Shown here in pieces: positions 50 to 26,897 of a stretch of 64,000 bases of DNA; positions within the stretch are counted from its first letter, which is position 1; the number at the start of each line of letters is the position of its first letter. Under the pieces are notes generated by a model. It searched no databases. It had not been told where the DNA came from and saw only the letters and a program-made list of their open reading frames with translations. This DNA is from Daphnia carinata (taxonomy: Eukaryota; Arthropoda; Branchiopoda; Diplostraca; Daphniidae): NCBI RefSeq assembly GCF_022539665.2, contig NC_081340.1:434001-498000 (forward strand), given 5' to 3'. The position numbers and the translations under genes are program-made.

Positions 50-169
50 GTCAACGGCCATACCACGTAGAACAAACCTTGTCTCGTCAGCTCCAGGAAG
101 TTAAGCTACGTCGGGTTCCGTTAGTACCTAGATGGGTGACCGCTTGGGAATACGGGATGCTGTTGGCAT
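50..169 (+). rRNA. 5S ribosomal RNA
   Basis: Full 120-nt copy, used here as the array reference. The internal pol III control region is recognisable: GTTAAGC at gene positions 51-57 and GATGGGTGACCGC at 82-94. Ends 1-9 and 110-118 pair. A T4 run at 176-179 is a plausible pol III terminator. Compared with usual arthropod 5S, helix III is unusual but still pairs (C29-G48, U30-G47, U31-A46, G32-C45). Confidence 0.97.
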
Positions 170-175
170 CAAAAC

Positions 176-179
176 TTTT
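176..179 (+). terminator. Pol III T4 terminator of the 5S unit (representative)
   Basis: Four T residues lie 7-10 nt after the gene end. The run is kept in intact units of both blocks, including those where the preceding bases change from AAAAC to AAAGC. Confidence 0.6.
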
Positions 180-254
180 ATATCCACCTAGCCGTTTTTG
201 GATGAATCACAGGGAAGTACGAACCATCTCGCGATGAATTCTAGTATTTTCTAA

Positions 255-272
255 AACGCCACCTAGTGGTCA
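255..272 (-). promoter_or_regulatory. CTCF-like core motif in the 5S spacer (representative)
   Basis: Read on the - strand the bases are TGACCACTAGGTGGCGTT, matching the CTCF core CCASYAGRKGGCR at every position. It lies about 86 bp past the 5S gene, antisense to it. The same motif occurs in the spacer of each complete unit in both blocks, for example at 8902-8919 (+). Binding is inferred from the motif alone. Confidence 0.5.
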
Positions 273-514
273 GTTTTGAAATTTCATCTCCTTCCAACTA
301 AAGGTTTTTTAAAACGAGAACACAAAAGGTATGGTACATTTCCGTGAGAAAAGTGACCTCTTTAAAGAAAGTGAATTTTATTTGTTATCATTTTTGTGGT
401 TGACCGAACGCGATGGTTACCAGTCCAATATCCTCAACTATATAAATCAATTGTACTTGTGCTGGTTTTAATGGACATTACTGGAGTGTATTCATTTTAT
501 TTTGGAACTGAATT

Positions 515-634
515 GTCAACGGCCATACCACGTAGAACAAACCTTGTCTCGTCAGCTCCAGGAAGTTAAGCTACGTCGGGTTCCGTTAGTACCTAGATGG
601 GTGACCGCTTGGGAATACGGGATGCTGTTGGCAT
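515..634 (+). rRNA. 5S ribosomal RNA
   Basis: Identical to the preceding copy, 465 bp downstream. Confidence 0.97.
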
Positions 635-979
635 CAAAACTTTTATATCCACCTAGCCGTTTTTGGATGAATCACAGGGAAGTACGAACCATCTCGCGAT
701 GAATTCTAGTATTTTCTAAAACGCCACCTAGTGGTCAGTTTTGAAATTTCATCTCCTTCCAACTAAAGGTTTTTTAAAACGAGAACACAAAAGGTATGGT
801 ACATTTCCGTGAGAAAAGTGACCTCTTTAAAGAAAGTGAATTTTATTTGTTATCATTTTTGTGGTTGACCGAACGCGATGGTTACCAGTCCAATATCCTC
901 AACTATATAAATCAATTGTACTTGTGCTGGTTTTAATGGACATTACTGGAGTGTATTCATTTTATTTTGGAACTGAATT

Positions 980-1099
980 GTCAACGGCCATACCACGTAG
1001 AACAAACCTTGTCTCGTCAGCTCCAGGAAGTTAAGCTACGTCGGGTTCCGTTAGTACCTAGATGGGTGACCGCTTGGGAATACGGGATGCTGTTGGCAT
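980..1099 (+). rRNA. 5S ribosomal RNA
   Basis: Identical third copy of the forward block. Confidence 0.97.
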
Positions 1100-1444
1100 C
1101 AAAACTTTTATATCCACCTAGCCGTTTTTGGATGAATCACAGGGAAGTACGAACCATCTCGCGATGAATTCTAGTATTTTCTAAAACGCCACCTAGTGGT
1201 CAGTTTTGAAATTTCATCTCCTTCCAACTAAAGGTTTTTTAAAACGAGAACACAAAAGGTATGGTACATTTCCGTGAGAAAAGTGACCTCTTTAAAGAAA
1301 GTGAATTTTATTTGTTATCATTTTTGTGGTTGACCGAACGCGATGGTTACCAGTCCAATATCCTCAACTATATAAATCAATTGTACTTGTGCTGGTTTTA
1401 ATGGACATTACTGGAGTGTATTCATTTTATTTTGGAACTGAATT

Positions 1445-1564
1445 GTCAACGGCCATACCACGTAGAACAAACCTTGTCTCGTCAGCTCCAGGAAGTTAAG
1501 CTACGTCGGGTTCCGTTAGTACCTAGATGGGTGACCGCTTGGGAATACGGGATGCTGTTGGCAT
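1445..1564 (+). rRNA. 5S ribosomal RNA
   Basis: Identical fourth copy of the forward block. Confidence 0.97.
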
Positions 1565-1909
1565 CAAAACTTTTATATCCACCTAGCCGTTTTTGGATGA
1601 ATCACAGGGAAGTACGAACCATCTCGCGATGAATTCTAGTATTTTCTAAAACGCCACCTAGTGGTCAGTTTTGAAATTTCATCTCCTTCCAACTAAAGGT
1701 TTTTTAAAACGAGAACACAAAAGGTATGGTACATTTCCGTGAGAAAAGTGACCTCTTTAAAGAAAGTGAATTTTATTTGTTATCATTTTTGTGGTTGACC
1801 GAACGCGATGGTTACCAGTCCAATATCCTCAACTATATAAATCAATTGTACTTGTGCTGGTTTTAATGGACATTACTGGAGTGTATTCATTTTATTTTGG
1901 AACTGAATT

Positions 1910-2029
1910 GTCAACGGCCATACCACGTAGAAAAAACCTTGTCTCGTCAGCTCCAGGAAGTTAAGCTACGTCGGGTTCCGTTAGTACCTAGATGGGTGAC
2001 CGCTTGGGAATACGGGATGCTGTTGGCAT
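1910..2029 (+). rRNA. 5S ribosomal RNA, C24A variant
   Basis: Differs from the four copies before it by C to A at gene position 24. The same change occurs in the copies at 8170 and 8636, on the far side of the Gypsy insertion. The variant therefore predates the insertion or was spread locally. Confidence 0.95.
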
Positions 2030-8169: not shown

Positions 8170-8290
8170 GTTCAACGGCCATACCACGTAGAAAAAACCT
8201 TGTCTCGTCAGCTCCAGGAAGTTAAGCTACGTCGGGTTCCGTTAGTACCTAGATGGGTGACCGCTTGGGAATACGGGATGCTGTTGGCAT
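8170..8290 (+). rRNA. 5S ribosomal RNA with 1-nt insertion
   Basis: Carries the C24A change and an extra T after the first base, giving 121 nt. The internal promoter is unaffected. Confidence 0.9.
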
Positions 8291-9145: not shown

Positions 9146-9265
9146 ATGCCAACAGCATCCCGTATTCCCAAGCGGTCACCCATCTAGGTACTAACGGAAC
9201 CCGACGTAGCTTAACTTCCTGGAGCTGACGAGACAAGGTTTGTTCTACGTGGTATGGCCGTTGAC
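9146..9265 (-). rRNA. 5S ribosomal RNA
   Basis: Full copy, the upstream partner of the fused dimer. Confidence 0.95.
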
Positions 9266-9609
9266 AATTCAGTTCCAAAATAAAATGAATACACTCCTGT
9301 AATGTCCATTAAAACCAGCACAAGTACAATTGATTTATATAGTTAAGGATATTGGACTGGTAACCATCGCGTTCGGTCAACCACAAAAATGCAAACAAAT
9401 AAAATTCACTTTCTTTAAAGAGGTCACTTTTCTCACGGAAATGCACCATTCTTTTTGTATTTCGTTTTAAAATACCTTTAGTTTATAGAAGATGAAATTT
9501 AAAAACTGACCACTAGGTGGCGTTTTAGAAAATACTAGAATTTACCGCGAGATGGTTCGTACTTCCCTGTGATTCATTCAAAAACAGCTAGGTGGATATA
9601 AAAGCTTTG

Positions 9610-9729
9610 ATGCCAACAGCATCCCGTATTCCCAAGCGGTCACCCATCTAGGTACTAACGGAACCCGACGTAGCTTAACTTCCTGGAGCTGACGAGACAA
9701 GGTTTGTTCTACGTGGTATGGCCGTTGAC
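9610..9729 (-). rRNA. 5S ribosomal RNA
   Basis: Full copy; its 3' flank has the AAAGCTTTTAT version. Confidence 0.96.
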
Positions 9730-10073
9730 AATTCAGTTCCAAAATAAAATGAATACACTCCAGTAATGTCCATTAAAACCAGCACAAGTACAATTGATTT
9801 ATATAGTTAAGGATATTGGACTGGTAACCATCGCGTTCGGTCAACCACAAAAATGCAAACAAATAAAATTCACTTTCTTTAAAGAGGTCACTTTTCTCAC
9901 GGAAATGCACCATTCTTTTTGTATTTCGTTTTAAAATACCTTTAGTTTATAGAAGATGAAATTTAAAAACTGACCACTAGGTGGCGTTTTAGAAAATACT
10001 AGAATTTACCGCGAGATGGTTCGTACTTCCCTGTGATTCATTCAAAAACAGCTAGGTGGATATAAAAGTTTTG

Positions 10074-10193
10074 ATGCCAACAGCATCCCGTATTCCCAAG
10101 CGGTCACCCATCTAGGTACTAACGGAACCCGACGTAGCTTAACTTCCTGGAGCTGACGAGACAAGGTTTGTTCTACGTGGTATGGCCGTTGAC
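10074..10193 (-). rRNA. 5S ribosomal RNA
   Basis: Full copy with the AAAACTTTTAT 3' flank. Confidence 0.96.
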
Positions 10194-10537
10194 AATTCAG
10201 TTCCAAAATAAAATGAATACACTCCAGTAATGTCCATTAAAACCAGCACAAGTACAATTGATTTATATAGTTAAGGATATTGGACTGGTAACCATCGCGT
10301 TCGGTCAACCACAAAAATGCAAACAAATAAAATTCACTTTCTTTAAAGAGGTCACTTTTCTCACGGAAATGCACCATTCTTTTTGTATTTCGTTTTAAAA
10401 TACCTTTAGTTTATAGAAGATGAAATTTAAAAACTGACCACTAGGTGGCGTTTTAGAAAATACTAGAATTTACCGCGAGATGGTTCGTACTTCCCTGTGA
10501 TTCATTCAAAAACAGCTAGGTGGATATAAAAGCTTTG

Positions 10538-10657
10538 ATGCCAACAGCATCCCGTATTCCCAAGCGGTCACCCATCTAGGTACTAACGGAACCCGACGTA
10601 GCTTAACTTCCTGGAGCTGACGAGACAAGGTTTGTTCTACGTGGTATGGCCGTTGAC
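10538..10657 (-). rRNA. 5S ribosomal RNA
   Basis: Full copy, 464 bp from its neighbour. Confidence 0.96.
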
Positions 10658-11001
10658 AATTCAGTTCCAAAATAAAATGAATACACTCCAGTAATGTCCA
10701 TTAAAACCAGCACAAGTACAATTGATTTATATAGTTAAGGATATTGGACTGGTAACCATCGCGTTCGGTCAACCACAAAAATGCAAACAAATAAAATTCA
10801 CTTTCTTTAAAGAGGTCACTTTTCTCACGGAAATGCACCATTCTTTTTGTATTTCGTTTTAAAATACCTTTAGTTTATAGAAGATGAAATTTAAAAACTG
10901 ACCACTAGGTGGCGTTTTAGAAAATACTAGAATTTACCGCGAGATGGTTCGTACTTCCCTGTGATTCATTCAAAAACAGCTAGGTGGATATAAAAGCTTT
11001 G

Positions 11002-11121
11002 ATGCCAACAGCATCCCGTATTCCCAAGCGGTCACCCATCTAGGTACTAACGGAACCCGACGTAGCTTAACTTCCTGGAGCTGACGAGACAAGGTTTGTT
11101 CTACGTGGTATGGCCGTTGAC
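11002..11121 (-). rRNA. 5S ribosomal RNA
   Basis: Full copy in the homogeneous AAAGC-flank group. Confidence 0.96.
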
Positions 11122-11465
11122 AATTCAGTTCCAAAATAAAATGAATACACTCCAGTAATGTCCATTAAAACCAGCACAAGTACAATTGATTTATATAGTT
11201 AAGGATATTGGACTGGTAACCATCGCGTTCGGTCAACCACAAAAATGCAAACAAATAAAATTCACTTTCTTTAAAGAGGTCACTTTTCTCACGGAAATGC
11301 ACCATTCTTTTTGTATTTCGTTTTAAAATACCTTTAGTTTATAGAAGATGAAATTTAAAAACTGACCACTAGGTGGCGTTTTAGAAAATACTAGAATTTA
11401 CCGCGAGATGGTTCGTACTTCCCTGTGATTCATTCAAAAACAGCTAGGTGGATATAAAAGCTTTG

Positions 11466-11585
11466 ATGCCAACAGCATCCCGTATTCCCAAGCGGTCACC
11501 CATCTAGGTACTAACGGAACCCGACGTAGCTTAACTTCCTGGAGCTGACGAGACAAGGTTTGTTCTACGTGGTATGGCCGTTGAC
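11466..11585 (-). rRNA. 5S ribosomal RNA
   Basis: Full copy in the homogeneous AAAGC-flank group. Confidence 0.96.
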
Positions 11586-11929
11586 AATTCAGTTCCAAAA
11601 TAAAATGAATACACTCCAGTAATGTCCATTAAAACCAGCACAAGTACAATTGATTTATATAGTTAAGGATATTGGACTGGTAACCATCGCGTTCGGTCAA
11701 CCACAAAAATGCAAACAAATAAAATTCACTTTCTTTAAAGAGGTCACTTTTCTCACGGAAATGCACCATTCTTTTTGTATTTCGTTTTAAAATACCTTTA
11801 GTTTATAGAAGATGAAATTTAAAAACTGACCACTAGGTGGCGTTTTAGAAAATACTAGAATTTACCGCGAGATGGTTCGTACTTCCCTGTGATTCATTCA
11901 AAAACAGCTAGGTGGATATAAAAGCTTTG

Positions 11930-12049
11930 ATGCCAACAGCATCCCGTATTCCCAAGCGGTCACCCATCTAGGTACTAACGGAACCCGACGTAGCTTAACT
12001 TCCTGGAGCTGACGAGACAAGGTTTGTTCTACGTGGTATGGCCGTTGAC
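11930..12049 (-). rRNA. 5S ribosomal RNA
   Basis: Full copy; its upstream spacer has one extra G near 12127, making the next interval 465 bp. Confidence 0.96.
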
Positions 12050-12394
12050 AATTCAGTTCCAAAATAAAATGAATACACTCCAGTAATGTCCATTAAAACC
12101 AGCACAAGTACAATTGATTTATATAGGTTAAGGATATTGGACTGGTAACCATCGCGTTCGGTCAACCACAAAAATGCAAACAAATAAAATTCACTTTCTT
12201 TAAAGAGGTCACTTTTCTCACGGAAATGCACCATTCTTTTTGTATTTCGTTTTAAAATACCTTTAGTTTATAGAAGATGAAATTTAAAAACTGACCACTA
12301 GGTGGCGTTTTAGAAAATACTAGAATTTACCGCGAGATGGTTCGTACTTCCCTGTGATTCATTCAAAAACAGCTAGGTGGATATAAAAGCTTTG

Positions 12395-12514
12395 ATGCCA
12401 ACAGCATCCCGTATTCCCAAGCGGTCACCCATCTAGGTACTAACGGAACCCGACGTAGCTTAACTTCCTGGAGCTGACGAGACAAGGTTTGTTCTACGTG
12501 GTATGGCCGTTGAC
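12395..12514 (-). rRNA. 5S ribosomal RNA
   Basis: Full copy in the AAAGC-flank group. Confidence 0.96.
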
Positions 12515-12858
12515 AATTCAGTTCCAAAATAAAATGAATACACTCCAGTAATGTCCATTAAAACCAGCACAAGTACAATTGATTTATATAGTTAAGGATA
12601 TTGGACTGGTAACCATCGCGTTCGGTCAACCACAAAAATGCAAACAAATAAAATTCACTTTCTTTAAAGAGGTCACTTTTCTCACGGAAATGCACCATTC
12701 TTTTTGTATTTCGTTTTAAAATACCTTTAGTTTATAGAAGATGAAATTTAAAAACTGACCACTAGGTGGCGTTTTAGAAAATACTAGAATTTACCGCGAG
12801 ATGGTTCGTACTTCCCTGTGATTCATTCAAAAACAGCTAGGTGGATATAAAAGCTTTG

Positions 12859-12978
12859 ATGCCAACAGCATCCCGTATTCCCAAGCGGTCACCCATCTAG
12901 GTACTAACGGAACCCGACGTAGCTTAACTTCCTGGAGCTGACGAGACAAGGTTTGTTCTACGTGGTATGGCCGTTGAC
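12859..12978 (-). rRNA. 5S ribosomal RNA
   Basis: Full copy in the AAAGC-flank group. Confidence 0.96.
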
Positions 12979-13322
12979 AATTCAGTTCCAAAATAAAATG
13001 AATACACTCCAGTAATGTCCATTAAAACCAGCACAAGTACAATTGATTTATATAGTTAAGGATATTGGACTGGTAACCATCGCGTTCGGTCAACCACAAA
13101 AATGCAAACAAATAAAATTCACTTTCTTTAAAGAGGTCACTTTTCTCACGGAAATGCACCATTCTTTTTGTATTTCGTTTTAAAATACCTTTAGTTTATA
13201 GAAGATGAAATTTAAAAACTGACCACTAGGTGGCGTTTTAGAAAATACTAGAATTTACCGCGAGATGGTTCGTACTTCCCTGTGATTCATTCAAAAACAG
13301 CTAGGTGGATATAAAAGCTTTG

Positions 13323-13442
13323 ATGCCAACAGCATCCCGTATTCCCAAGCGGTCACCCATCTAGGTACTAACGGAACCCGACGTAGCTTAACTTCCTGGA
13401 GCTGACGAGACAAGGTTTGTTCTACGTGGTATGGCCGTTGAC
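13323..13442 (-). rRNA. 5S ribosomal RNA
   Basis: Full copy directly adjoining the divergent variant gene. Confidence 0.96.
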
Positions 13443-13786
13443 AATTCAGTTCCAAAATAAAATGAATACACTCCAGTAATGTCCATTAAAACCAGCACAA
13501 GTACAATTGATTTATATAGTTAAGGATATTGGACTGGTAACCATCGCGTTCGGTCAACCACAAAAATGCAAACAAATAAAATTCACTTTCTTTAAAGAGG
13601 TCACTTTTCTCACGGAAATGCACCATTCTTTTTGTATTTCGTTTTAAAATACCTTTAGTTTATAGAAGATGAAATTTAAAAACTGACCACTAGGTGGCGT
13701 TTTAGAAAATACTAGAATTTACCGCGAGATGGTTCGTACTTCCCTGTGATTCATTCAAAAACGGCTAGGTGGATATAAAAGTTTTG

Positions 13787-13906
13787 ATGCCAACTGCATC
13801 CCGTATTCCCAAGCGGTCACCCATACAAGTACTAACGGGACCCGACGTAGCTTAACTGCAGGGAGCTGACGAGACCTGGTGTGTTCTACGTGGTATGGCC
13901 GTTGAC
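13787..13906 (-). rRNA. 5S ribosomal RNA, divergent variant
   Basis: This 120-nt copy differs from the array sequence at 11 positions: 26, 30, 31, 46, 47, 49, 68, 79, 81, 82 and 112. Its spacers match other units by eye. Positions 30-31 and 46-47 change together, so helix III stays paired (U30-G47 becomes A30-U47; U31-A46 becomes G31-C46). Position 68 turns a U-G pair with 107 into C-G. Positions 82 and 112 each create a mismatch, and 49 alters the bulged A region of helix III. It is either a distinct expressed 5S type moved into the array by conversion, or an ageing pseudogene. The pairing pattern favours the first. Confidence 0.9.
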
Positions 13907-14250
13907 AATTCAGTTCCAAAATAAAATGAATACACTCCAGTAATGTCCATTAAAACCAGCACAAGTACAATTGATTTATATAGTTAAGGATATTGGACTG
14001 GTAACCATCGCGTTCGGTCAACCACAAAAATGCAAACAAATAAAATTCACTTTCTTTAAAGAGGTCACTTTTCTCACGGAAATGCACCATTCTTTTTGTA
14101 TTTCGTTTTAAAATACCTTTAGTTTATAGAAGATGAAATTTAAAAACTGACCACTAGGTGGCGTTTTAGAAAATACTAGAATTTACCGCGAGATGGTTCG
14201 TACTTCCCTGTGATTCATTCAAAAACAGCTAGGTGGATATAAAAGCTTTG

Positions 14251-14370
14251 ATGCCAACAGCATCCCGTATTCCCAAGCGGTCACCCATCTAGGTACTAAC
14301 GGAACCCGACGTAGCTTAACTTCCTGGAGCTGACGAGACAAGGTTTGTTCTACGTGGTATGGCCGTTGAC
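14251..14370 (-). rRNA. 5S ribosomal RNA
   Basis: Full copy; the array sequence is restored immediately after the variant gene. Confidence 0.96.
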
Positions 14371-14714
14371 AATTCAGTTCCAAAATAAAATGAATACACT
14401 CCAGTAATGTCCATTAAAACCAGCACAAGTACAATTGATTTATATAGTTAAGGATATTGGACTGGTAACCATCGCGTTCGGTCAACCACAAAAATGCAAA
14501 CAAATAAAATTCACTTTCTTTAAAGAGGTCACTTTTCTCACGGAAATGCACCATTCTTTTTGTATTTCGTTTTAAAATACCTTTAGTTTATAGAAGATGA
14601 AATTTAAAAACTGACCACTAGGTGGCGTTTTAGAAAATACTAGAATTTACCGCGAGATGGTTCGTACTTCCCTGTGATTCATTCAAAAACAGCTAGGTGG
14701 ATATAAAAGCTTTG

Positions 14715-14834
14715 ATGCCAACAGCATCCCGTATTCCCAAGCGGTCACCCATCTAGGTACTAACGGAACCCGACGTAGCTTAACTTCCTGGAGCTGACGA
14801 GACAAGGTTTGTTCTACGTGGTATGGCCGTTGAC
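14715..14834 (-). rRNA. 5S ribosomal RNA
   Basis: Full copy in the AAAGC-flank group. Confidence 0.96.
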
Positions 14835-15178
14835 AATTCAGTTCCAAAATAAAATGAATACACTCCAGTAATGTCCATTAAAACCAGCACAAGTACAATT
14901 GATTTATATAGTTAAGGATATTGGACTGGTAACCATCGCGTTCGGTCAACCACAAAAATGCAAACAAATAAAATTCACTTTCTTTAAAGAGGTCACTTTT
15001 CTCACGGAAATGCACCATTCTTTTTGTATTTCGTTTTAAAATACCTTTAGTTTATAGAAGATGAAATTTAAAAACTGACCACTAGGTGGCGTTTTAGAAA
15101 ATACTAGAATTTACCGCGAGATGGTTCGTACTTCCCTGTGATTCATTCAAAAACAGCTAGGTGGATATAAAAGTTTTG

Positions 15179-15298
15179 ATGCCAACAGCATCCCGTATTC
15201 CCAAGCGGTCACCCATCTAGGTACTAACGGAACCCGACGTAGCTTAACTTCCTGGAGCTGACGAGACAAGGTTTGTTCTACGTGGTATGGCCGTTGAC
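15179..15298 (-). rRNA. 5S ribosomal RNA
   Basis: Full copy, AAAAC flank. Confidence 0.96.
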
Positions 15299-15642
15299 AA
15301 TTCAGTTCCAAAATAAAATGAATACACTCCAGTAATGTCCATTAAAACCAGCACAAGTACAATTGATTTATATAGTTAAGGATATTGGACTGGTAACCAT
15401 CGCGTTCGGTCAACCACAAAAATGCAAACAAATAAAATTCACTTTCTTTAAAGAGGTCACTTTTCTCACGGAAATGCACCATTCTTTTTGTATTTCGTTT
15501 TAAAATACCTTTAGTTTATAGAAGATGAAATTTAAAAACTGACCACTAGGTGGCGTTTTAGAAAATACTAGAATTTACCGCGAGATGGTTCGTACTTCCC
15601 TGTGATTCATTCAAAAACAGCTAGGTGGATATAAAAGTTTTG

Positions 15643-15762
15643 ATGCCAACAGCATCCCGTATTCCCAAGCGGTCACCCATCTAGGTACTAACGGAACCCG
15701 ACGTAGCTTAACTTCCTGGAGCTGACGAGACAAGGTTTGTTCTACGTGGTATGGCCGTTGAC
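15643..15762 (-). rRNA. 5S ribosomal RNA
   Basis: Full copy, AAAAC flank. Confidence 0.96.
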
Positions 15763-16092
15763 AATTCAGTTCCAAAATAAAATGAATACACTCCAGTAAT
15801 GTCCATTAAAACCAGCACAAGTACAATTGATTTATATAGTTAAGGATATTGGACTGGTAACCATCGCGTTCGGTCAACCACAAAAATGCAAACAAATAAA
15901 ATTCACTTTCTTTAAAGAGGTCACTTTTCTCACGGAAATGCACCATTCTTTTTGTATTTCGTTTTAAAATACCTTTAGTTTATAGAAGATGAAATTTAAA
16001 AACTGACCACTAGGTGGCGTTTTAGAAAATACTAGAATTTACTGCGAGATGGTTCGTACTTCCCTGTGATTCATTCAAAAACAGCTAGGTGG

Positions 16093-16195
16093 TATTCCCA
16101 AGCGGTCACCCATCTAGGTACTAACGGAACCCGACGTAGCTTAACTTCCTGGAGCTGACGAGACAAGGTTTGTTCTACGTGGTATGGCCGTTGAC
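16093..16195 (-). rRNA. 5S ribosomal RNA, 3' truncated
   Basis: A 33-bp deletion removes the last 17 nt of the gene and the T4 terminator. Without the 3' strand of helix I it is unlikely to give stable 5S RNA, and read-through transcription would be expected. Confidence 0.92.
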
Positions 16196-16539
16196 AATTC
16201 AGTTCCAAAATAAAATGAATACACTCCAGTAATGTCCATTAAAACCAGCACAAGTACAATTGATTTATATAGTTAAGGATATTGGACTGGTAACCATCGC
16301 GTTCGGTCAACCACAAAAATGCAAACAAATAAAATTCACTTTCTTTAAAGAGGTCACTTTTCTCACGGAAATGCACCATTCTTTTTGTATTTCGTTTTAA
16401 AATACCTTTAGTTTATAGAAGATGAAATTTAAAAACTGACCACTAGGTGGCGTTTTAGAAAATACTAGAATTTACCGCGAGATGGTTCGTACTTCCCTGT
16501 GATTCATTCAAAAACAGCTAGGTGGATATAAAAGTTTTG

Positions 16540-16659
16540 ATGCCAACAGCATCCCGTATTCCCAAGCGGTCACCCATCTAGGTACTAACGGAACCCGACG
16601 TAGCTTAACTTCCTGGAGCTGACGAGACAAGGTTTGTTCTACGTGGTATGGCCGTTGAC
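16540..16659 (-). rRNA. 5S ribosomal RNA
   Basis: Full copy, upstream neighbour of the 3'-truncated gene. Confidence 0.96.
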
Positions 16660-17003
16660 AATTCAGTTCCAAAATAAAATGAATACACTCCAGTAATGTC
16701 CATTAAAACCAGCACAAGTACAATTGATTTATATAGTTAAGGATATTGGACTGGTAACCATCGCGTTCGGTCAACCACAAAAATGCAAACAAATAAAATT
16801 CACTTTCTTTAAAGAGGTCACTTTTCTCACGGAAATGCACCATTCTTTTTGTATTTCGTTTTAAAATACCTTTAGTTTATAGAAGATGAAATTTAAAAAC
16901 TGACCACTAGGTGGCGTTTTAGAAAATACTAGAATTTACCGCGAGATGGTTCGTACTTCCCTGTGATTCATTCAAAAACGGCTAGGTGGATATAAAAGTT
17001 TTG

Positions 17004-17123
17004 ATGCCAACAGCATCCCGTATTCCCAAGCGGTCACCCATCTAGGTACTAACGGAACCCGACGTAGCTTAACTTCCTGGAGCTGACGAGACAAGGTTTG
17101 TTCTACGTGGTATGGCCGTTGAC
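17004..17123 (-). rRNA. 5S ribosomal RNA
   Basis: Full copy with the CGGCTAGG flank. Confidence 0.96.
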
Positions 17124-17467
17124 AATTCAGTTCCAAAATAAAATGAATACACTCCAGTAATGTCCATTAAAACCAGCACAAGTACAATTGATTTATATAG
17201 TTAAGGATATTGGACTGGTAACCATCGCGTTCGGTCAACCACAAAAATGCAAACAAATAAAATTCACTTTCTTTAAAGAGGTCACTTTTCTCACGGAAAT
17301 GCACCATTCTTTTTGTATTTCGTTTTAAAATACCTTTAGTTTATAGAAGATGAAATTTAAAAACTGACCACTAGGTGGCGTTTTAGAAAATACTAGAATT
17401 TACCGCGAGATGGTTCGTACTTCCCTGTGATTCATTCAAAAACGGCTAGGTGGATATAAAAGTTTTG

Positions 17468-17587
17468 ATGCCAACAGCATCCCGTATTCCCAAGCGGTCA
17501 CCCATCTAGGTACTAACGGAACCCGACGTAGCTTAACTTCCTGGAGCTGACGAGACAAGGTTTGTTCTACGTGGTATGGCCGTTGAC
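17468..17587 (-). rRNA. 5S ribosomal RNA
   Basis: Full copy with the CGGCTAGG flank. Confidence 0.96.
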
Positions 17588-17931
17588 AATTCAGTTCCAA
17601 AATAAAATGAATACACTCCAGTAATGTCCATTAAAACCAGCACAAGTACAATTGATTTATATAGTTAAGGATATTGGACTGGTAACCATCGCGTTCGGTC
17701 AACCACAAAAATGCAAACAAATAAAATTCACTTTCTTTAAAGAGGTCACTTTTCTCACGGAAATGCACCATTCTTTTTGTATTTCGTTTTAAAATACCTT
17801 TAGTTTATAGAAGATGAAATTTAAAAACTGACCACTAGGTGGCGTTTTAGAAAATACTAGAATTTACCGCGAGATGGTTCGTACTTCCCTGTGATTCATT
17901 CAAAAACAGCTAGGTGGATATAAAAGTTTTG

Positions 17932-18051
17932 ATGCCAACAGCATCCCGTATTCCCAAGCGGTCACCCATCTAGGTACTAACGGAACCCGACGTAGCTTAA
18001 CTTCCTGGAGCTGACGAGACAAGGTTTGTTCTACGTGGTATGGCCGTTGAC
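17932..18051 (-). rRNA. 5S ribosomal RNA
   Basis: Full copy, last with the CATTCAAAAACAG flank. Confidence 0.96.
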
Positions 18052-18395
18052 AATTCAGTTCCAAAATAAAATGAATACACTCCAGTAATGTCCATTAAAA
18101 CCAGCACAAGTACAATTGATTTATATAGTTAAGGATATTGGACTGGTAACCATCGCGTTCGGTCAACCACAAAAATGCAAACAAATAAAATTCACTTTCT
18201 TTAAAGAGGTCACTTTTCTCACGGAAATGCACCATTCTTTTTGTATTTCGTTTTAAAATACCTTTAGTTTATAGAAGATGAAATTTAAAAACTGACCACT
18301 AGGTGGCGTTTTAGAAAATACTAGAATTTACCGCGAGATGGTTCGTACTTCCCTGTGATTCATCCAAAAACGGCTAGGTGGATATAAAAGTTTTG

Positions 18396-18515
18396 ATGCC
18401 AACAGCATCCCGTATTCCCAAGCGGTCACCCATCTAGGTACTAACGGAACCCGACGTAGCTTAACTTCCTGGAGCTGACGAGACAAGGTTTGTTCTACGT
18501 GGTATGGCCGTTGAC
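18396..18515 (-). rRNA. 5S ribosomal RNA
   Basis: Full copy, first of the CATCCAAAAACGG group; its upstream spacer holds a small insertion near 18620 (ATTC duplicated). Confidence 0.96.
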
Positions 18516-18863
18516 AATTCAGTTCCAAAATAAAATGAATACACTCCAGTAATGTCCATTAAAACCAGCACAAGTACAATTGATTTATATAGTTAAGGAT
18601 ATTGGACTGGTAACCATCGCATTCATTCGGTCAACCACAAAAATGCAAACAAATAAAATTCACTTTCTTTAAAGAGGTCACTTTTCTCACGGAAATGCAC
18701 CATTCTTTTTGTATTTCGTTTTAAAATACCTTTAGTTTATAGAAGATGAAATTTAAAAACTGACCACTAGGTGGCGTTTTAGAAAATACTAGAATTTACC
18801 GCGAGATGGTTCGTACTTCCCTGTGATTCATCCAAAAACGGCTAGGTGGATATAAAAGTTTTG

Positions 18864-18983
18864 ATGCCAACAGCATCCCGTATTCCCAAGCGGTCACCCA
18901 TCTAGGTACTAACGGAACCCGACGTAGCTTAACTTCCTGGAGCTGACGAGACAAGGTTTGTTCTACGTGGTATGGCCGTTGAC
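18864..18983 (-). rRNA. 5S ribosomal RNA
   Basis: Full copy; 468 bp from its neighbour because of the 4-bp spacer insertion. Confidence 0.96.
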
Positions 18984-19327
18984 AATTCAGTTCCAAAATA
19001 AAATGAATACACTCCAGTAATGTCCATTAAAACCAGCACAAGTACAATTGATTTATATAGTTAAGGATATTGGACTGGTAACCATCGCGTTCGGTCAACC
19101 ACAAAAATGCAAACAAATAAAATTCACTTTCTTTAAAGAGGTCACTTTTCTCACGGAAATGCACCATTCTTTTTGTATTTCGTTTTAAAATACCTTTAGT
19201 TTATAGAAGATGAAATTTCAAAACTGACCACTAGGTGGCGTTTTAGAAAATACTAGAATTTACCGCGAGATGGTTCGTACTTCCCTGTGATTCATCCAAA
19301 AACGGCTAGGTGGATATAAAAGTTTTG

Positions 19328-19447
19328 ATGCCAACAGCATCCCGTATTCCCAAGCGGTCACCCATCTAGGTACTAACGGAACCCGACGTAGCTTAACTTC
19401 CTGGAGCTGACGAGACAAGGTTTGTTCTACGTGGTATGGCCGTTGAC
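19328..19447 (-). rRNA. 5S ribosomal RNA
   Basis: Full copy; its spacer lacks 2 bp near 19565. Confidence 0.96.
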
Positions 19448-19789
19448 AATTCAGTTCCAAAATAAAATGAATACACTCCAGTAATGTCCATTAAAACCAG
19501 CACAAGTACAATTGATTTATATAGTTAAGGATATTGGACTGGTAACCATCGCGTTCGGTCAACCAAAAATGCAAACAAATAAAATTCACTTTCTTTAAAG
19601 AGGTCACTTTTCTCACGGAAATGCACCATTCTTTTTGTATTTCGTTTTAAAATACCTTTAGTTTATAGAAGATGAAATTTCAAAACTGACCACTAGGTGG
19701 CGTTTTAGAAAATACTAGAATTTACCGCGAGATGGTTCGTACTTCCCTGTGATTCATCCAAAAACGGCTAGGTGGATATAAAAGTTTTG

Positions 19790-19904
19790 ATGCCAACAGC
19801 ATCCCGTATTCCCAAGCGGTCACCCATCTAGGTACTAACGGAACCCGACGTAGCTTAACTTCCTGGAGCTGACGAGACAAGGTTTGTTCTACGTGGTATG
19901 TGAC
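19790..19904 (-). rRNA. 5S ribosomal RNA with 5-nt internal deletion
   Basis: Lacks 5 nt near the 5' end (CCGTT to TT on the + strand), which removes part of the helix I 5' strand. The internal promoter is intact. Confidence 0.92.
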
Positions 19905-20248
19905 AATTCAGTTACAAAATAAAATGAATACACTCCAGTAATGTCCATTAAAACCAGCACAAGTACAATTGATTTATATAGTTAAGGATATTGGACTGGT
20001 AACCATCGCGTTCGGTCAACCACAAAAATGCAAACAAATAAAATTCACTTTCTTTAAAGAGGTCACTTTTCTCACGGAAATGCACCATTCTTTTTGTATT
20101 TCGTTTTAAAATACCTTTAGTTTATAGAAGATGAAATTTAAAAACTGACCACTAGGTGGCGTTTTAGAAAATACTAGAATTTACCGCGAGATGGTTCGTA
20201 CTTCCCTGTGATTCATCCAAAAACGGCTAGGTGGATATAAAAGTTTTG

Positions 20249-20368
20249 ATGCCAACAGCATCCCGTATTCCCAAGCGGTCACCCATCTAGGTACTAACGG
20301 AACCCGACGTAGCTTAACTTCCTGGAGCTGACGAGACAAGGTTTGTTCTACGTGGTATGGCCGTTGAC
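20249..20368 (-). rRNA. 5S ribosomal RNA
   Basis: Full copy. Confidence 0.96.
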
Positions 20369-20712
20369 AATTCAGTTCCAAAATAAAATGAATACACTCC
20401 AGTAATGTCCATTAAAACCAGCACAAGTACAATTGATTTATATAGTTAAGGATATTGGACTGGTAACCATCGCGTTCGGTCAACCACAAAAATGCAAACA
20501 AATAAAATTCACTTTCTTTAAAGAGGTCACTTTTCACACGGAAATGCACCATTCTTTTTGTATTTCGTTTTAAAATACCTTTAGTTTATAGAAGATGAAA
20601 TTTCAAAACTGACCACTAGGTGGCGTTTTAGAAAATACTAGAATTTACCGCGAGATGGTTCGTACTTCCCTGTGATTCATCCAAAAACGGCTAGGTGGAT
20701 ATAAAAGTTTTG

Positions 20713-20832
20713 ATGCCAACAGCATCCCGTATTCCCAAGCGGTCACCCATCTAGGTACTAACGGAACCCGACGTAGCTTAACTTCCTGGAGCTGACGAGA
20801 CAAGGTTTGTTCTACGTGGTATGGCCGTTGAC
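20713..20832 (-). rRNA. 5S ribosomal RNA
   Basis: Full copy; its upstream spacer is shortened by about 96 bp at 20938. Confidence 0.96.
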
Positions 20833-21080
20833 AATTCAGTTCCAAAATAAAATGAATACACTCCAGTAATGTCCATTAAAACCAGCACAAGTACAATTGA
20901 TTTATATAGTTAAGGATATTGGACTGGTAACCATCGCTTAAAATACCTTTAGTTTATAGAAGATGAAATTTCAAAACTGACCACTAGGTGGCGTTTTAGA
21001 AAATACTAGAATTTACCGCGAGATGGTTCGTACTTCCCTGTGATTCATCCAAAAACGGCTAGGTGGATATAAAAGTTTTG

Positions 21081-21200
21081 ATGCCAACAGCATCCCGTAT
21101 TCCCAAGCGGTCACCCATCTAGGTACTAACGGAACCCGACGTAGCTTAACTTCCTGGAGCTGACGAGACAAGGTTTGTTCTACGTGGTATGGCCGTTGAC
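21081..21200 (-). rRNA. 5S ribosomal RNA
   Basis: Full copy only 368 bp from its neighbour because of the shortened spacer. Confidence 0.96.
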
Positions 21201-21544
21201 AATTCAGTTCCAAAATAAAATGAATACACTCCAGTAATGTCCATTAAAACCAGCACAAGTACAATTGATTTATATAGTTAAGGATATTGGACTGGTAACC
21301 ATCGCGTTCGGTCAACCACAAAAATGCAAACAAATAAAATTCACTTTCTTTAAAGAGGTCACTTTTCTCACGGAAATGCACCATTCTTTTTGTATTTCGT
21401 TTTAAAATACCTTTAGTTTATAGAAGATGAAATTTAAAAACTGACCACTAGGTGGCGTTTTAGAAAATACTAGAATTTACCGCGAGATGGTTCGTACTTC
21501 CCTGTGATTCATCCAAAAACGGCTAGGTGGATATAAAAGTTTTG

Positions 21545-21664
21545 ATGCCAACAGCATCCCGTATTCCCAAGCGGTCACCCATCTAGGTACTAACGGAACC
21601 CGACGTAGCTTAACTTCCTGGAGCTGACGAGACAAGGTTTGTTCTACGTGGTATGGCCGTTGAC
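21545..21664 (-). rRNA. 5S ribosomal RNA
   Basis: Full copy bordering the scrambled unit. Confidence 0.96.
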
Positions 21665-21954
21665 AATTCAGTTCCAAAATAAAATGAATACACTCCAGTA
21701 ATGTCCATTAAAACCAGCACAAGTACAATTGATTTATATAGTTAAGGATATTGGACTGGTAACCATCGCGTTCGGTCAACCACAAAAATGCAAACAAATA
21801 AAATTCACTTTCTTTAAAGAGGTCACTTTTCTCACGGAAATGCACCATTCTTTTTGTATTTCGTTTTAAAATACCTTTAGTTTATAGAAGATGAAATTTA
21901 AAAACTGACCACTAGGTGGCGTTTTAGAAAATACTAGAATTTACCGCGAGATGG

Positions 21955-22335
21955 TTCATCCAAAAACGGCTAGGTGGATATAAAAGTTTTGATGCCAACA
22001 GCATGATTCATCCAAAAACGGAACCCGACGTAGGCTAGGTGGATATAATACACTCCAGTTTTGAAACCAGCACAGCATTGATATTAGTTAAGGATATTGG
22101 ACTGGTCACCCATCTAAATAAAATTCACTTTCTTTAAAAGGTACTAACGGAACTTTTTGTATTTCGTTTTAAAATACCTTTACGACCACTAGGTGGCGTT
22201 TTAGAAAATACCTGGAATTTACGAGACATGGTTTGTTCTTCGTGATTCATCCAAAAACGGCAGTTCCAATAATAAAATGAATACACATCCAGTAATGTCC
22301 ATTAAAAACAGCACAAGTACAAATTATTTATATAG
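21955..22335 (-). repeat. Scrambled 5S unit
   Basis: About 380 bp made of short pieces of the 5S gene and spacer in shuffled order, all in the parental orientation. A flank piece is followed by a gene fragment, another flank, spacer pieces and CTCF-like motif sequence (around 22183-22200). No intact 5S gene remains. Neighbouring units are normal. It may be a real multi-template-switch rearrangement or a consensus error. Confidence 0.85.
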
Positions 22336-22602
22336 TTAAGGATATTGGACTGGTAACCATCGCGTTCGGTCAACCACAAAAATGCAAACAAATAAAATTC
22401 ACTTTCTTTAAAGAGGTCACTTTTCTCACGGAAATGCACCATTCTTTTTGTATTTCGTTTTAAAATACCTTTAGTTTATAGAAGATGAAATTTCAAAACT
22501 GACCACTAGGTGGCGTTTTAGAAAATACTAGAATTTACCGCGAGATGGTTCGTACTTCCCTGTGATTCATCCAAAAACGGCTAGGTGGATATAAAAGTTT
22601 TG

Positions 22603-22722
22603 ATGCCAACAGCATCCCGTATTCCCAAGCGGTCACCCATCTAGGTACTAACGGAACCCGACGTAGCTTAACTTCCTGGAGCTGACGAGACAAGGTTTGT
22701 TCTACGTGGTATGGCCGTTGAC
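22603..22722 (-). rRNA. 5S ribosomal RNA
   Basis: Full copy; normal array resumes after the scrambled unit. Confidence 0.96.
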
Positions 22723-23066
22723 AATTCAGTTCCAAAATAAAATGAATACACTCCAGTAATGTCCATTAAAACCAGCACAAGTACAATTGATTTATATAGT
22801 TAAGGATATTGGACTGGTAACCATCGCGTTCGGTCAACCACAAAAATGCAAACAAATAAAATTCACTTTCTTTAAAGAGGTCACTTTTCTCACGGAAATG
22901 CACCATTCTTTTTGTATTTCGTTTTAAAATACCTTTAGTTTATAGAAGATGAAATTTAAAAACTGACCACTAGGTGGCGTTTTAGAAAATACTAGAATTT
23001 ACCGCGAGATGGTTCGTACTTCCCTGTGATTCATCCAAAAACGGCTAGGTGGATATAAAAATTTTG

Positions 23067-23186
23067 ATGCCAACAGCATCCCGTATTCCCAAGCGGTCAC
23101 CCATCTAGGTACTAACGGAACCCGACGTAGCTTAACTTCCTGGAGCTGACGAGACAAGGTTTGTTCTACGTGGTATGGCCGTTGAC
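23067..23186 (-). rRNA. 5S ribosomal RNA
   Basis: Full copy; the terminator flank is changed to AAAATTTTTAT by one base, lengthening the T run. Confidence 0.96.
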
Positions 23187-23530
23187 AATTCAGTTCCAAA
23201 ATAAAATGAATACACTCCAGTAATGTCCATTAAAACCAGCACAAGTACAATTGATTTATATAGTTAAGGATATTGGACTGGTAACCATCGCGTTCGGTCA
23301 ACCACAAAAATGCAAACAAATAAAATTCACTTTCTTTAAAGAGGTCACTTTTCTCACGGAAATGCACCATTCTTTTTGTATTTCGTTTTAAAATACCTTT
23401 AGTTTATAGAAGATGAAATTTCAAAACTGACCACTAGGTGGCGTTTTAGAAAATACTAGAATTTACCGCGAGATGGTTCGTACTTCCCTGTGATTCATCC
23501 AAAAACGGCTAGGTGGATATAAAAGTTTTG

Positions 23531-23651
23531 ATGCCAACAGCATCCCGTATTCCCAAGCGGTCACCCATCTAGGTACTAACGGAACCCGACGTAGCTTAAC
23601 TTCCTGGAGCTGACGAGACAAGGTTTTGTTCTACGTGGTATGGCCGTTGAC
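23531..23651 (-). rRNA. 5S ribosomal RNA with 1-nt insertion
   Basis: An extra A (extra T on the + strand near 23624) in the region of gene positions 25-28 gives 121 nt. Confidence 0.94.
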
Positions 23652-23995
23652 AATTCAGTTCCAAAATAAAATGAATACACTCCAGTAATGTCCATTAAAA
23701 CCAGCACAAGTACAATTGATTTATATAGTTAAGGATATTGGACTGGTAACCATCGCGTTCGGTCAACCACAAAAATGCAAACAAATAAAATTCACTTTCT
23801 TTTAAGAGGTCACTTTTCTCACGGAAATGCACCATTCTTTTTGTATTTCGTTTTAAAATACCTTTAGTTTATAGAAGATGAAATTTCAAAACTGACCACT
23901 AGGTGGCGTTTTAGAAAATACTAGAATTTACCGCGAGATGGTTCGTACTTCCCTGTGATTCATCCAAAAACGGCTAGGTGGATATAAAAGTTTTG

Positions 23996-24115
23996 ATGCC
24001 AACAGCATCCCGTATTCCCAAGCGGTCACCCATCTAGGTACTAACGGAACCCGACGTAGCTTAACTTCCTGGAGCTGACGAGACAAGGTTTGTTCTACGT
24101 GGTATGGCCGTTGAC
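23996..24115 (-). rRNA. 5S ribosomal RNA
   Basis: Full copy. Confidence 0.96.
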
Positions 24116-24459
24116 AATTCAGTTCCAAAATAAAATGAATACACTCCAGTAATGTCCATTAAAACCAGCACAAGTACAATTGATTTATATAGTTAAGGAT
24201 ATTGGACTGGTAACCATCGCGTTCGGTCAACCACAAAAATGCAAACAAATAAAATTCACTTTCTTTTAAGAGGTCACTTTTCTCACGGAAATGCACCATT
24301 CTTTTTGTATTTCGTTTTAAAATACCTTTAGTTTATAGAAGATGAAATTTCAAAACTGACCACTAGGTGGCGTTTTAGAAAATACTAGAATTCACCGCGA
24401 GATGGTTCGTACTTCCCTGTGATTCATCCAAAAACGGCTAGGTGGATATAAAAGTTTTG

Positions 24460-24579
24460 ATGCCAACAGCATCCCGTATTCCCAAGCGGTCACCCATCTA
24501 GGTACTAACGGAACCCGACGTAGCTTAACTTCCTGGAGCTGACGAGACAAGGTTTGTTCTACGTGGTATGGCCGTTGAC
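24460..24579 (-). rRNA. 5S ribosomal RNA
   Basis: Full copy; the flank changes from TTTACCGCG to TTCACCGCG from here rightward. Confidence 0.96.
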
Positions 24580-24921
24580 AATTCAGTTCCAAAATAAAAT
24601 GAATACACTCCAGTAATGTCCATTAAAACCAGCACAAGTACAATTGATTTATATAGTTAAGGATATTGGACTGGTAACCATCGCGTTCGGTCAACCACAA
24701 AAATGCAAACAAATAAAATTCACTTTCTTTAGAGGTCACTTTTCTCACGGAAATGCACCATTCTTTTTGTATTTCGTTTTAAAATACCTTTAGTTTATAG
24801 AAGATGAAATTTCAAAACTGACCACTAGGTGGCGTTTTAGAAAATACTAGAATTCACCGCGAGATGGTTCGTACTTCCCTGTGATTCATCCAAAAACGGC
24901 TAGGTGGATATAAAAGTTTTG

Positions 24922-25041
24922 ATGCCAACAGCATCCCGTATTCCCAAGCGGTCACCCATCTAGGTACTAACGGAACCCGACGTAGCTTAACTTCCTGGAG
25001 CTGACGAGACAAGGTTTGTTCTACGTGGTATGGCCGTTGAC
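24922..25041 (-). rRNA. 5S ribosomal RNA
   Basis: Full copy, first with the TTGACAACTCAG 5' flank. Confidence 0.96.
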
Positions 25042-25385
25042 AACTCAGTTCCAAAATAAAATGAATACACTCCAGTAATGTCCATTAAAACCAGCACAAG
25101 TACAATTGATTTATATAGTTAAGGATATTGGACTGGTAACCATCGCGTTCGGTCAACCACAAAAATGCAAACAAATAAAATTCACTTTCTTTTAAGAGGT
25201 CACTTTTCTCACGGAAATGCACCATTCTTTTTGTATTTCGTTTTAAAATACCTTTAGTTTATAGAAGATGAAATTTCAAAACTGACCACTAGGTGGCGTT
25301 TTAGAAAATACTAGAATTCACCGCGAGATGGTTCGTACTTCCCTGTGATTCATCCAAAAACGGCTAGGTGGATATAAAAGTTTTG

Positions 25386-25505
25386 ATGCCAACAGCATCC
25401 CGTATTCCCAAGCGGTCACCCATCTAGGTACTAACGGAACCCGACGTAGCTTAACTTCCTGGAGCTGACGAGACAAGGTTTGTTCTACGTGGTATGGCCG
25501 TTGAC
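25386..25505 (-). rRNA. 5S ribosomal RNA
   Basis: Full copy, CAACTCAG flank group. Confidence 0.96.
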
Positions 25506-25850
25506 AACTCAGTTCCAAAATAAAATGAATACACTCCAGTAATGTCCATTAAAACCAGCACAAGTACAATTGATTTATATAGTTAAGGATATTGGACTGG
25601 TAACCATCGCGTTCGGTCAACCACAAAAAATGCAAACAAATAAAATTCACTTTCTTTTAAGAGGTCACTTTTCTCACGGAAATGCACCATTCTTTTTGTA
25701 TTTCGTTTTAAAATACCTTTAGTTTATAGAAGATGAAATTTCAAAACTGACCACTAGGTGGCGTTTTAGAAAATACTAGAATTCACCGCGAGATGGTTCG
25801 TACTTCCCTGTGATTCATCCAAAAACGGCTAGGTGGATATAAAAGTTTTG

Positions 25851-25970
25851 ATGCCAACAGCATCCCGTATTCCCAAGCGGTCACCCATCTAGGTACTAAC
25901 GGAACCCGACGTAGCTTAACTTCCTGGAGCTGACGAGACAAGGTTTGTTCTACGTGGTATGGCCGTTGAC
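25851..25970 (-). rRNA. 5S ribosomal RNA
   Basis: Full copy, CAACTCAG flank group. Confidence 0.96.
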
Positions 25971-26313
25971 AACTCAGTTCCAAAATAAAATGAATACACT
26001 CCAGTAATGTCCATTAAAACCAGCACAAGTACAATTGATTTATATAGTTAAGGATATTGGACTGGTAACCATCGCGTTCGGTCAACCACAAAATGCAAAC
26101 AAATAAAATTCACTTTCTTTTAAGAGGTCACTTTTCTCACGGAAATGCACCATTCTTTTTGTATTTCGTTTTAAAATACCTTTAGTTTATAGAAGATGAA
26201 ATTTCAAAACTGACCACTAGGTGGCGTTTTAGAAAATACTAGAATTCACCGCGAGATGGTTCGTACTTCCCTGTGATTCATCCAAAAACGGCTAGGTGGA
26301 TATAAAAGTTTTG

Positions 26314-26433
26314 ATGCCAACAGCATCCCGTATTCCCAAGCGGTCACCCATCTAGGTACTAACGGAACCCGACGTAGCTTAACTTCCTGGAGCTGACGAG
26401 ACAAGGTTTGTTCTACGTGGTATGGCCGTTGAC
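26314..26433 (-). rRNA. 5S ribosomal RNA
   Basis: Full copy, CAACTCAG flank group. Confidence 0.96.
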
Positions 26434-26777
26434 AACTCAGTTCCAAAATAAAATGAATACACTCCAGTAATGTCCATTAAAACCAGCACAAGTACAATTG
26501 ATTTATATAGTTAAGGATATTGGACTGGTAACCATCGCGTTCGGTCAACCACAAAAATGCAAACAAATAAAATTCACTTTCTTTTAAGAGGTCACTTTTC
26601 TCACGGAAATGTACCATACCTTTTGTGTTCTCGTTTTAAAAACCTTTAGTTGGAAGGAGATGAAATTTCAAAACTGACCACTAGGTGGCGTTTTAGAAAA
26701 TACTAGAATTCACCGCGAGATGGTTCGTACTTCCCTGTGATTCATCCAAAAACGGCTAGGTGGATATAAAAGTTTTG

Positions 26778-26897
26778 ATGCCAACAGCATCCCGTATTCC
26801 CAAGCGGTCACCCATCTAGGTACTAACGGAACCCGACGTAGCTTAACTTCCTGGAGCTGACGAGACAAGGTTTGTTCTACGTGGTATGGCCGTTGAC
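26778..26897 (-). rRNA. 5S ribosomal RNA
   Basis: Last full copy of the reverse block, flanked by type A spacer on both sides. Confidence 0.96.

What the first reader, a model, noticed from the sequence alone, without database searches (positions are those of the whole stretch)
13787..13906. A divergent 5S gene with all changes inside the 120-bp gene and paired compensations
Seen: 11 substitutions relative to the array sequence, none in its surrounding spacer that is not shared with other units. Two helix III pairs are replaced on both strands (30/47 and 31/46), and position 68 converts a wobble pair to C-G. Known: decaying pseudogenes accumulate changes in gene and spacer alike. Inference: a second functional 5S type was pasted in by gene conversion, as with the dual oocyte/somatic 5S types in other animals. 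Against it: mismatches at 82-94 and 7-112.
Basis: partly seen in the sequence, partly recalled or inferred. Interest (0 to 1): 0.78.

Follow-up and report, generated by a model that had tools for sequence, protein, structure and literature searches.

The report
Second 5S type in tandem array
In a water-flea-like genome, one gene in a long run of identical 5S ribosomal RNA genes carries the sequence of a different 5S gene type that also sits on another chromosome, apparently copied in by gene conversion; whether this type is used by the animal is not known.

Summary
In detail: window 13787-13906 (-) is a 5S gene with 11 substitutions against its array. The same form (V) lies on another chromosome, C5:8605250, with 10 of the 11 changes and unrelated flanks. 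A deleted copy lies at C10:358893, and six array units (four sequences) carry pieces of V: 16 of their 16 differences are V letters, against 1 of 16 in nine other variant genes. That is gene conversion, not decay. Here the tract runs from gene position 26 or before to at least 24 bp past the gene, so the immediate donor was probably another array unit. Corrections: at 5 of 11 sites the array alone is odd; 82T is private to this copy; 49C and the 7-112 mismatch belong to V. Four 5S types exist, and pair 30/47 is U-G, A-U, C-G or G-C in them, so V probably evolved under pairing constraint. An oocyte/somatic role is untested; T1 (446 matches) versus T2 (11, in an snRNA repeat) is the better dual-system candidate.

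The parts
13787..13906 (-). 5S rRNA gene of type V plus the private change 82T, inside an array of T1 genes
   Evidence: 11 differences from T1; Rfam 96.2 bits; 10 of the 11 shared with C5:8605250
13763..13881 (-). Smallest converted tract: gene position 26 to 24 bp past the gene's 3' end (119 bp)
   Evidence: V letters at 26-112; spacer +5 and +24 differ from the four neighbours compared, upstream spacer identical to two of them; +32 has the local letter
13857..13881 (-). Helix III sites 26, 30, 31, 46, 47, 49 of the variant (compensated pairs 30/47 and 31/46; 49 is in the bulge)
   Evidence: the name 'bulge' for 49-50 is recalled
13825..13825 (-). Position 82, G>T: private to this copy; unpairs from 94
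   Evidence: only one of nine places with the surrounding pattern has T here; pair 82/94 recalled
9147..26897 (-). Minus-strand 5S array (464-bp units, mostly T1) that holds the variant unit
50..2028 (+). Plus-strand T1-type 5S units (465-bp) at the start of the window

Best explanation
A 5S gene of the array was overwritten by gene conversion with the sequence of a second 5S type, V. Shown: V exists as a complete gene on another chromosome near a U1 gene, with flanks unlike the array; pieces of V occur in six other array units; the spacer around this gene is ordinary apart from two shared variants just past its 3' end. Inferred: V sequence entered the arrays by ectopic conversion, limited at first to the 120 bp of homology, was then passed between array units, and reached this unit in a tract of at least 119 bp that included 24 bp of array spacer. 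The copy then gained, or its donor already had, the private change 82T. V itself is a structurally constrained 5S lineage: it keeps the letter shared with the other types at 26, 31, 46, 68 and 81, where T1 alone differs, and has its own changes at 30/47 (compensated), 49 and 112. I think V is, or recently was, a transcribed minor 5S gene, and that this array copy is a passenger without a special role, possibly impaired by 82T.
For: Second copy on C5 with 10 of 11 changes and unrelated flanks. V letters 26-31 at 5 places, 46-49 at 6, 68-81 at 9, counted genome-wide. Mosaics: 16 of 16 differences in four mosaic sequences are V letters, against 1 of 16 in nine other variant genes (Fisher p 6e-8), and each mosaic has at least one letter found in V but not in W or T2. 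Units with short tracts have spacers identical to a neighbour: C10:46780 against 46316, C10:171582 against 171118. Tract edges at the window unit. Pair 30/47 has four states in four types.
Against: The C5 gene cannot have given the spacer letters +5 and +24, so at least one step in between is assumed. Two mosaics are not simple single tracts: C10:134485 has V letters at 46 and 49 but not 47, and C83:2199 has V letters at 46, 68, 79, 81 and 112 but not 47 or 49; its letters at 46-81 equally fit type W. The deleted V copy at C10:358893 and the unit C83:2199 lie in an intermediate spacer class, which could mean V is old in the arrays. No RNA evidence for V. V has a changed letter at 49 and a G-A at 7/112, and the pairing test V to W is not significant (p 0.085).
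Confidence: 0.75

Rival explanations
1. V is the older array gene. T1 swept through the arrays by unequal exchange and conversion; the V unit and the mosaics are leftovers, and the C5 copy is an orphan of the old array.
For: The deleted V copy (C10:358893) and the mosaic C83:2199 sit in an intermediate spacer class seen in 8 of 134 units. T1 is the type that changed at 26, 31, 46, 68 and 81.
Against: The window unit's spacer matches its T1 neighbours apart from +5 and +24, and mosaics with V letters only at 26-31 or 46-49 have neighbours' spacers; leftovers would need T1 tracts on both sides of each patch. The C5 copy has no array spacer.
Confidence: 0.17
2. V is a specialised 5S (oocyte, stage or tissue) and its presence in the array is kept by selection.
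For: Compensated pairs and a higher Rfam score than T1 (98.7 for the C5 copy, 96.2 here, 92.8 for T1); a run of five T follows the C5 gene.
Against: One intact copy on C5 and one here, against 446 pattern matches for T1. The window copy has 82T; the only other array V copy found is deleted. Half-converted copies with broken helix III persist.
Confidence: 0.04
3. An ordinary decaying pseudogene whose changes arose one by one in place.
For: Mismatches at 7/112 and, by recalled structure, 82/94.
Against: 10 of the 11 changes recur together on C5; the spacer has no private change. A decaying-looking copy, C10:584903, differs at 66 aligned bases, only 5 of them in the gene.
Confidence: 0.01
4. Assembly or polishing artefact.
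For: The array is long and near-identical, and raw reads were not available.
Against: 82T occurs nowhere else, so the sequence cannot simply be borrowed from the C5 copy, whose flanks also differ. Mosaics lie on three contigs.
Confidence: 0.03

Closest known systems
Maternal/oocyte and somatic 5S types (zebrafish, Xenopus)
   Same: Several 5S types in one genome, a large set and a small one on different chromosomes, and a 5S-inserted non-LTR retrotransposon. Zebrafish: 2330 maternal-type genes on chromosome 4, 12 somatic-type on chromosome 18, with different retrotransposon target sites (PMC5513064, passages). Here T1 446 and T2 11 pattern matches.
   Different: Expression not tested. The window variant V is neither the large set nor the small repeated set. 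T2 lies in an snRNA repeat.
Concerted plus birth-and-death evolution of 5S genes by gene conversion
   Same: Paralogous 5S classes and homogenisation by conversion and unequal exchange (fish; PMC3123226, passages).
   Different: Here the tracts themselves are visible, as T1/V mosaics down to sites 46-49, and half-converted genes have broken pairs.
5S genes linked to snRNA genes
   Same: T2 lies in a repeat with U1 and U2; V on C5 lies about 1.2 kb from a U1. Linkages of 5S with snRNA genes in fish and in the crustacean Asellus are recalled, not read here.
   Different: One repeat of about 4.7 kb holds U2, U1, 5S, tRNA-Pro, U4, U5, 7SL and U3.
Mutsu-like 5S-specific non-LTR retrotransposons
   Same: About 5.1 kb, two ORFs, endonuclease plus reverse transcriptase, inserted inside 5S genes. 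Mutsu: 5S target, about 5500 bp, two ORFs (PMC11202950, passages).
   Different: Insertion position and proteins were not compared with zebrafish Mutsu.

Membership tests
5S rRNA gene (RF00001) | Full-length match above Rfam's gathering score | tested here: met
   96.2 bits against 38, model 1-120
5S rRNA gene (RF00001) | Transcribed and built into ribosomes | not testable with these tools
   no RNA data
Interlocus gene conversion | A donor-like sequence elsewhere and a recipient with ordinary flanks | tested here: met
   C5:8605250; upstream spacer identical to two neighbours
Interlocus gene conversion | Partial tracts in other copies | tested here: met
   six units, four sequences; two are not single simple tracts
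Interlocus gene conversion | Direction of transfer known | tested here: inconclusive
   no outgroup species; spacer +5 and +24 point to an array unit as last donor
Dual oocyte/somatic 5S system | Two conserved types in different copy numbers at different loci | tested here: met
   T1 446 and T2 11 pattern matches; for V: one intact copy on C5 and this one
Dual oocyte/somatic 5S system | Stage-specific expression | not testable with these tools
   no RNA data
Pseudogene by decay in place | Changes in gene and spacer alike, without regard to pairing | tested here: not met
   no private spacer change; pairing kept better than in random placement, p 0.008
Mutsu-like element (insert in other 5S genes) | Insertion inside 5S genes at one site, with endonuclease and reverse transcriptase | tested here: met
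   breaks at 48-52 in 7 of 9 W halves and after 48 in one T1 gene; PF03372 and PF00078 in ORF2
Mutsu-like element (insert in other 5S genes) | Sequence relationship to zebrafish Mutsu | not tested
   no Mutsu sequence was fetched

The most novel reading that the evidence does not exclude
Turnover of 5S types in this genome is driven by a 5S-specific retrotransposon. Types that fit its target around positions 46-58 are hit: 7 of 9 W-type 5' halves break at 48-52, and two T1 places carry the insertion junction. Types with a changed target (T2; V at 46, 47 and 49) escape and spread, V by conversion into the arrays. The short 46-49 tract in three T1 units would be the import of exactly the altered target, and T1 and T2 would be a crustacean counterpart of the zebrafish maternal/somatic pair.
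Probability: 0.12. Interest if true: 0.8.

Novelty: new member of a known kind. Interest (0 to 1): 0.5.

Why it matters
5S arrays are textbook cases of concerted evolution, in which the donors of conversion are usually invisible because the copies are alike. Here a distinct type leaves tracts as short as sites 46-49, so tract length, direction and the cost of half-converted helices can be read off. It also points to a four-type 5S system in a water-flea-like genome, with a large-array type and a small snRNA-linked type, an arrangement that resembles the zebrafish developmental pair and that total RNA sequencing could test directly.

Tried and rejected
Organism: I first guessed an ascidian and searched a recalled Ciona spliced-leader 16-mer; no match. 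COX1 then pointed to Daphnia. Direct transfer from C5 into the window was set aside because the tract carries array spacer letters. Escape from the retrotransposon as the cause of V was tested weakly: W 7 of 9 against T2 0 of 11 gives Fisher p 0.0005, but at least five W halves share one junction and are probably one event; with an assumed 3 of 5 independent cases p is 0.018, and T1 (2 of 448) against T2 shows nothing (p 1.0). That T2 has no insertion rests on its 11 intact pattern matches and the intact copies fetched; a T2 gene interrupted before the pattern's end was not sought. For V the absence of insertions is uninformative (two full copies). My spacer reference was the minority spacer class (26 of 134 units); the private counts do not depend on it, the mismatch totals do, so I used direct neighbour comparison. 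One search scored only 40 of 559 candidates and missed C10:358893, found by pattern.

Full report
What the window is. It is C10:434001-498000 of an unnamed 108-Mb genome in 106 contigs. Mitochondrial COX1, read with code 5, is 97% identical to the listed Daphnia magna protein and 97% to the Daphnia carinata one over the 447-aa query, so a Daphnia or a close relative; the species is not settled. The window holds 45 5S matches above Rfam's cut-off, 38 of them at the common score of 92.8 bits, and 38 exact T1 copies.

The gene. At 13787-13906 on the minus strand the 5S gene differs from T1 at 26, 30, 31, 46, 47, 49, 68, 79, 81, 82 and 112. It scores higher against Rfam than T1 (96.2 against 92.8). 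Its downstream spacer has no variant private to it among 134 units.

It is not alone. The search with the 120-mer (40 of 559 candidates scored) listed one exact place, here, and a 119-base match at C5:8605250 that differs at 82 only. That gene has unrelated flanks and lies about 1.2 kb downstream of a U1 gene on the same strand. Genome-wide patterns: the V letters 26-31 occur at 5 places, 46-49 at 6 and 68-81 at 9. Of those nine, seven are on C5: the V gene, and six that read as W-type pieces. Position 82T occurs at one place only, here.

Mosaics. In the fetched parts of C10, C35 and C83, 141 5S matches have 100 or more aligned bases, and 115 of them are exact T1. Four variant sequences, in six units, are mosaics of T1 and V: 26,30,31 (C10:171582); 46,47,49 (C10:46780, C10:170191, C35:9540); 26,30,31,46,49 (C10:134485); 46,68,79,81,112 (C83:2199). 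All 16 differences in these four are V letters; in nine other variant sequences 1 of 16 is. Left out of that count were the window gene, repeats of a sequence already counted, genes on C5 and matches not 120 bases long, among them the deleted V copy at C10:358893. The last two mosaics are not single simple tracts, since they skip 47, or 47 and 49; in C83:2199 only 112 separates V from W. Two mosaics break both helix III pairs: 26-31 alone gives A-G and G-A at 30/47 and 31/46, 46-49 alone gives U-U and U-C. Conversion is thus not filtered for working products.

The tract here. Upstream, 340 bp match units 446859 and 448251 exactly; against 447323 and 448715 the only differences are at -340 and -321. 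Downstream, only +5 and +24 differ from the four neighbours compared. In C10:443610-448715, 10 of the 11 other units have G5 and T24 and one (444074) has A5 and T24; this unit has A5, C24 and the local A32. One tract from position 26 or before to +24 or beyond, from an array donor carrying V, explains this. The C5 gene cannot be the immediate donor of those spacer letters.

Which side changed. Comparing T1, V, W and T2: T1 alone differs at 26, 31, 46, 68 and 81; V alone at 49 and 112; at 47 V and T2 each have their own letter; at 30 all four differ; 79 is split two and two; 82 is private to this copy. W was read by joining the halves of an interrupted gene, T2 with one extra base set aside. 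Pair 30/47 is U-G, A-U, C-G and G-C in T1, V, W and T2; 31/46 is U-A in T1 and G-C in the rest; 19/59 and 20/58 change on both sides in T2. Energies of the Rfam structure are -16.3 (T1), -17.9 (V), -22.3 (W) and -30.4 (T2) kcal/mol. Random placement of the same number of changes breaks more pairs than observed for T1 to V (p 0.011), T1 to the window copy (p 0.008) and V to T2 (p 0.0003), not clearly for V to W (p 0.085). The model does not contain 82/94, so it does not see that lesion.

The other types. T1 has 446 exact matches to a 41-base pattern (the first 100 places were listed, all on C10). T2 has 11, all on C5; the 10 fetched are identical over 119 bases. T2 lies in a repeat of about 4.7 kb; the unit in L023 holds U2, U1, 5S, tRNA-Pro, U4, U5, 7SL on the other strand, and U3, then the next U2. 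W has nine 5' halves on C5 (one search lists ten places, one being the mosaic C10:134485): seven break at 48-52, two run to 84 with a deletion, and none of the nine is intact. The interrupting element ends in poly(A); the T1 example at C10:5372-10516 has two ORFs, the second with endonuclease and reverse transcriptase domains. Its 3' junction pattern occurs at 7 places, 5 with the W letter and 2 with the T1 letter at 68; four of the five W places form two pairs 233-234 bp apart.

Known context. Zebrafish has dual 5S types with different retrotransposon target sites (PMC5513064, passages; the primary paper PMC5340908 is not held); the stage switch is repeated in passages of PMC12953832. [quoted passage not shown] Searches for Daphnia with 5S and for 5S with snRNA, 7SL and U3 listed no title or abstract on these types or this repeat; apart from the papers named I saw listings only, and most subscription journals are not held.

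Verdict. The functional part is open: V looks like a constrained lineage, this copy carries an extra lesion, and the oocyte/somatic analogy fits T1 and T2 better than T1 and V.

Noticed in passing
L023:4393-9312 (C5:8874392-8879311): Repeat of about 4.7 kb with U2, U1, 5S (type T2), tRNA-Pro, U4, U5, 7SL on the other strand, and U3: spliceosomal, ribosomal, SRP and snoRNA genes in one unit.
   Followed up: partly
L014:5372 to L015:516 (C10:5372-10516): Non-LTR retrotransposon inserted in a T1 5S gene after position 48, with poly(A) end and endonuclease/reverse transcriptase ORF; related inserts at the same site in W-type 5S genes on C5.
   Followed up: partly
L023:611-4315: 1234-aa ORF with a reverse transcriptase domain between two partial-scoring U2 matches (19-131 and 4393-4584), possibly a U2-targeting element of the R2 or Keno kind; that name is recalled.
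   Followed up: no
window:2466-7444: Ty3/Gypsy-like element (gag and pol ORFs) lying between two plus-strand 5S units at 1910-2028 and 8171-8289, both with the change 24 C>A.
   Followed up: no
window:37400-39466: BEL/Pao-like ORF with Peptidase_A17 and integrase zinc-binding domains.
   Followed up: no
window:9006-9124, 16076-16195, 19791-19911, 23532-23651: Four 5S copies with damaged ends or an extra base (first bases replaced; end lost into the spacer; start altered; one extra A), none with V letters.
   Followed up: partly
window:27228-30738 and 34702-36336: Two 70-bp tandem repeat arrays whose units look inverted to each other, each ended by a short 15/43-bp repeat, flanking the end of the 5S array.
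   Followed up: no
G000:C92 and C106: Three COX1 copies that differ in sequence, two on C92 about 16.7 kb apart and a more divergent one on C106: another mitochondrial lineage, a nuclear copy or a mixed assembly.
   Followed up: no
C10 5S arrays, spacer: Spacer classes: of 134 units, 26 carry one class at all 17 diagnostic sites, 21 the opposite class at all 17, and most others mosaics of the two.
   Followed up: partly
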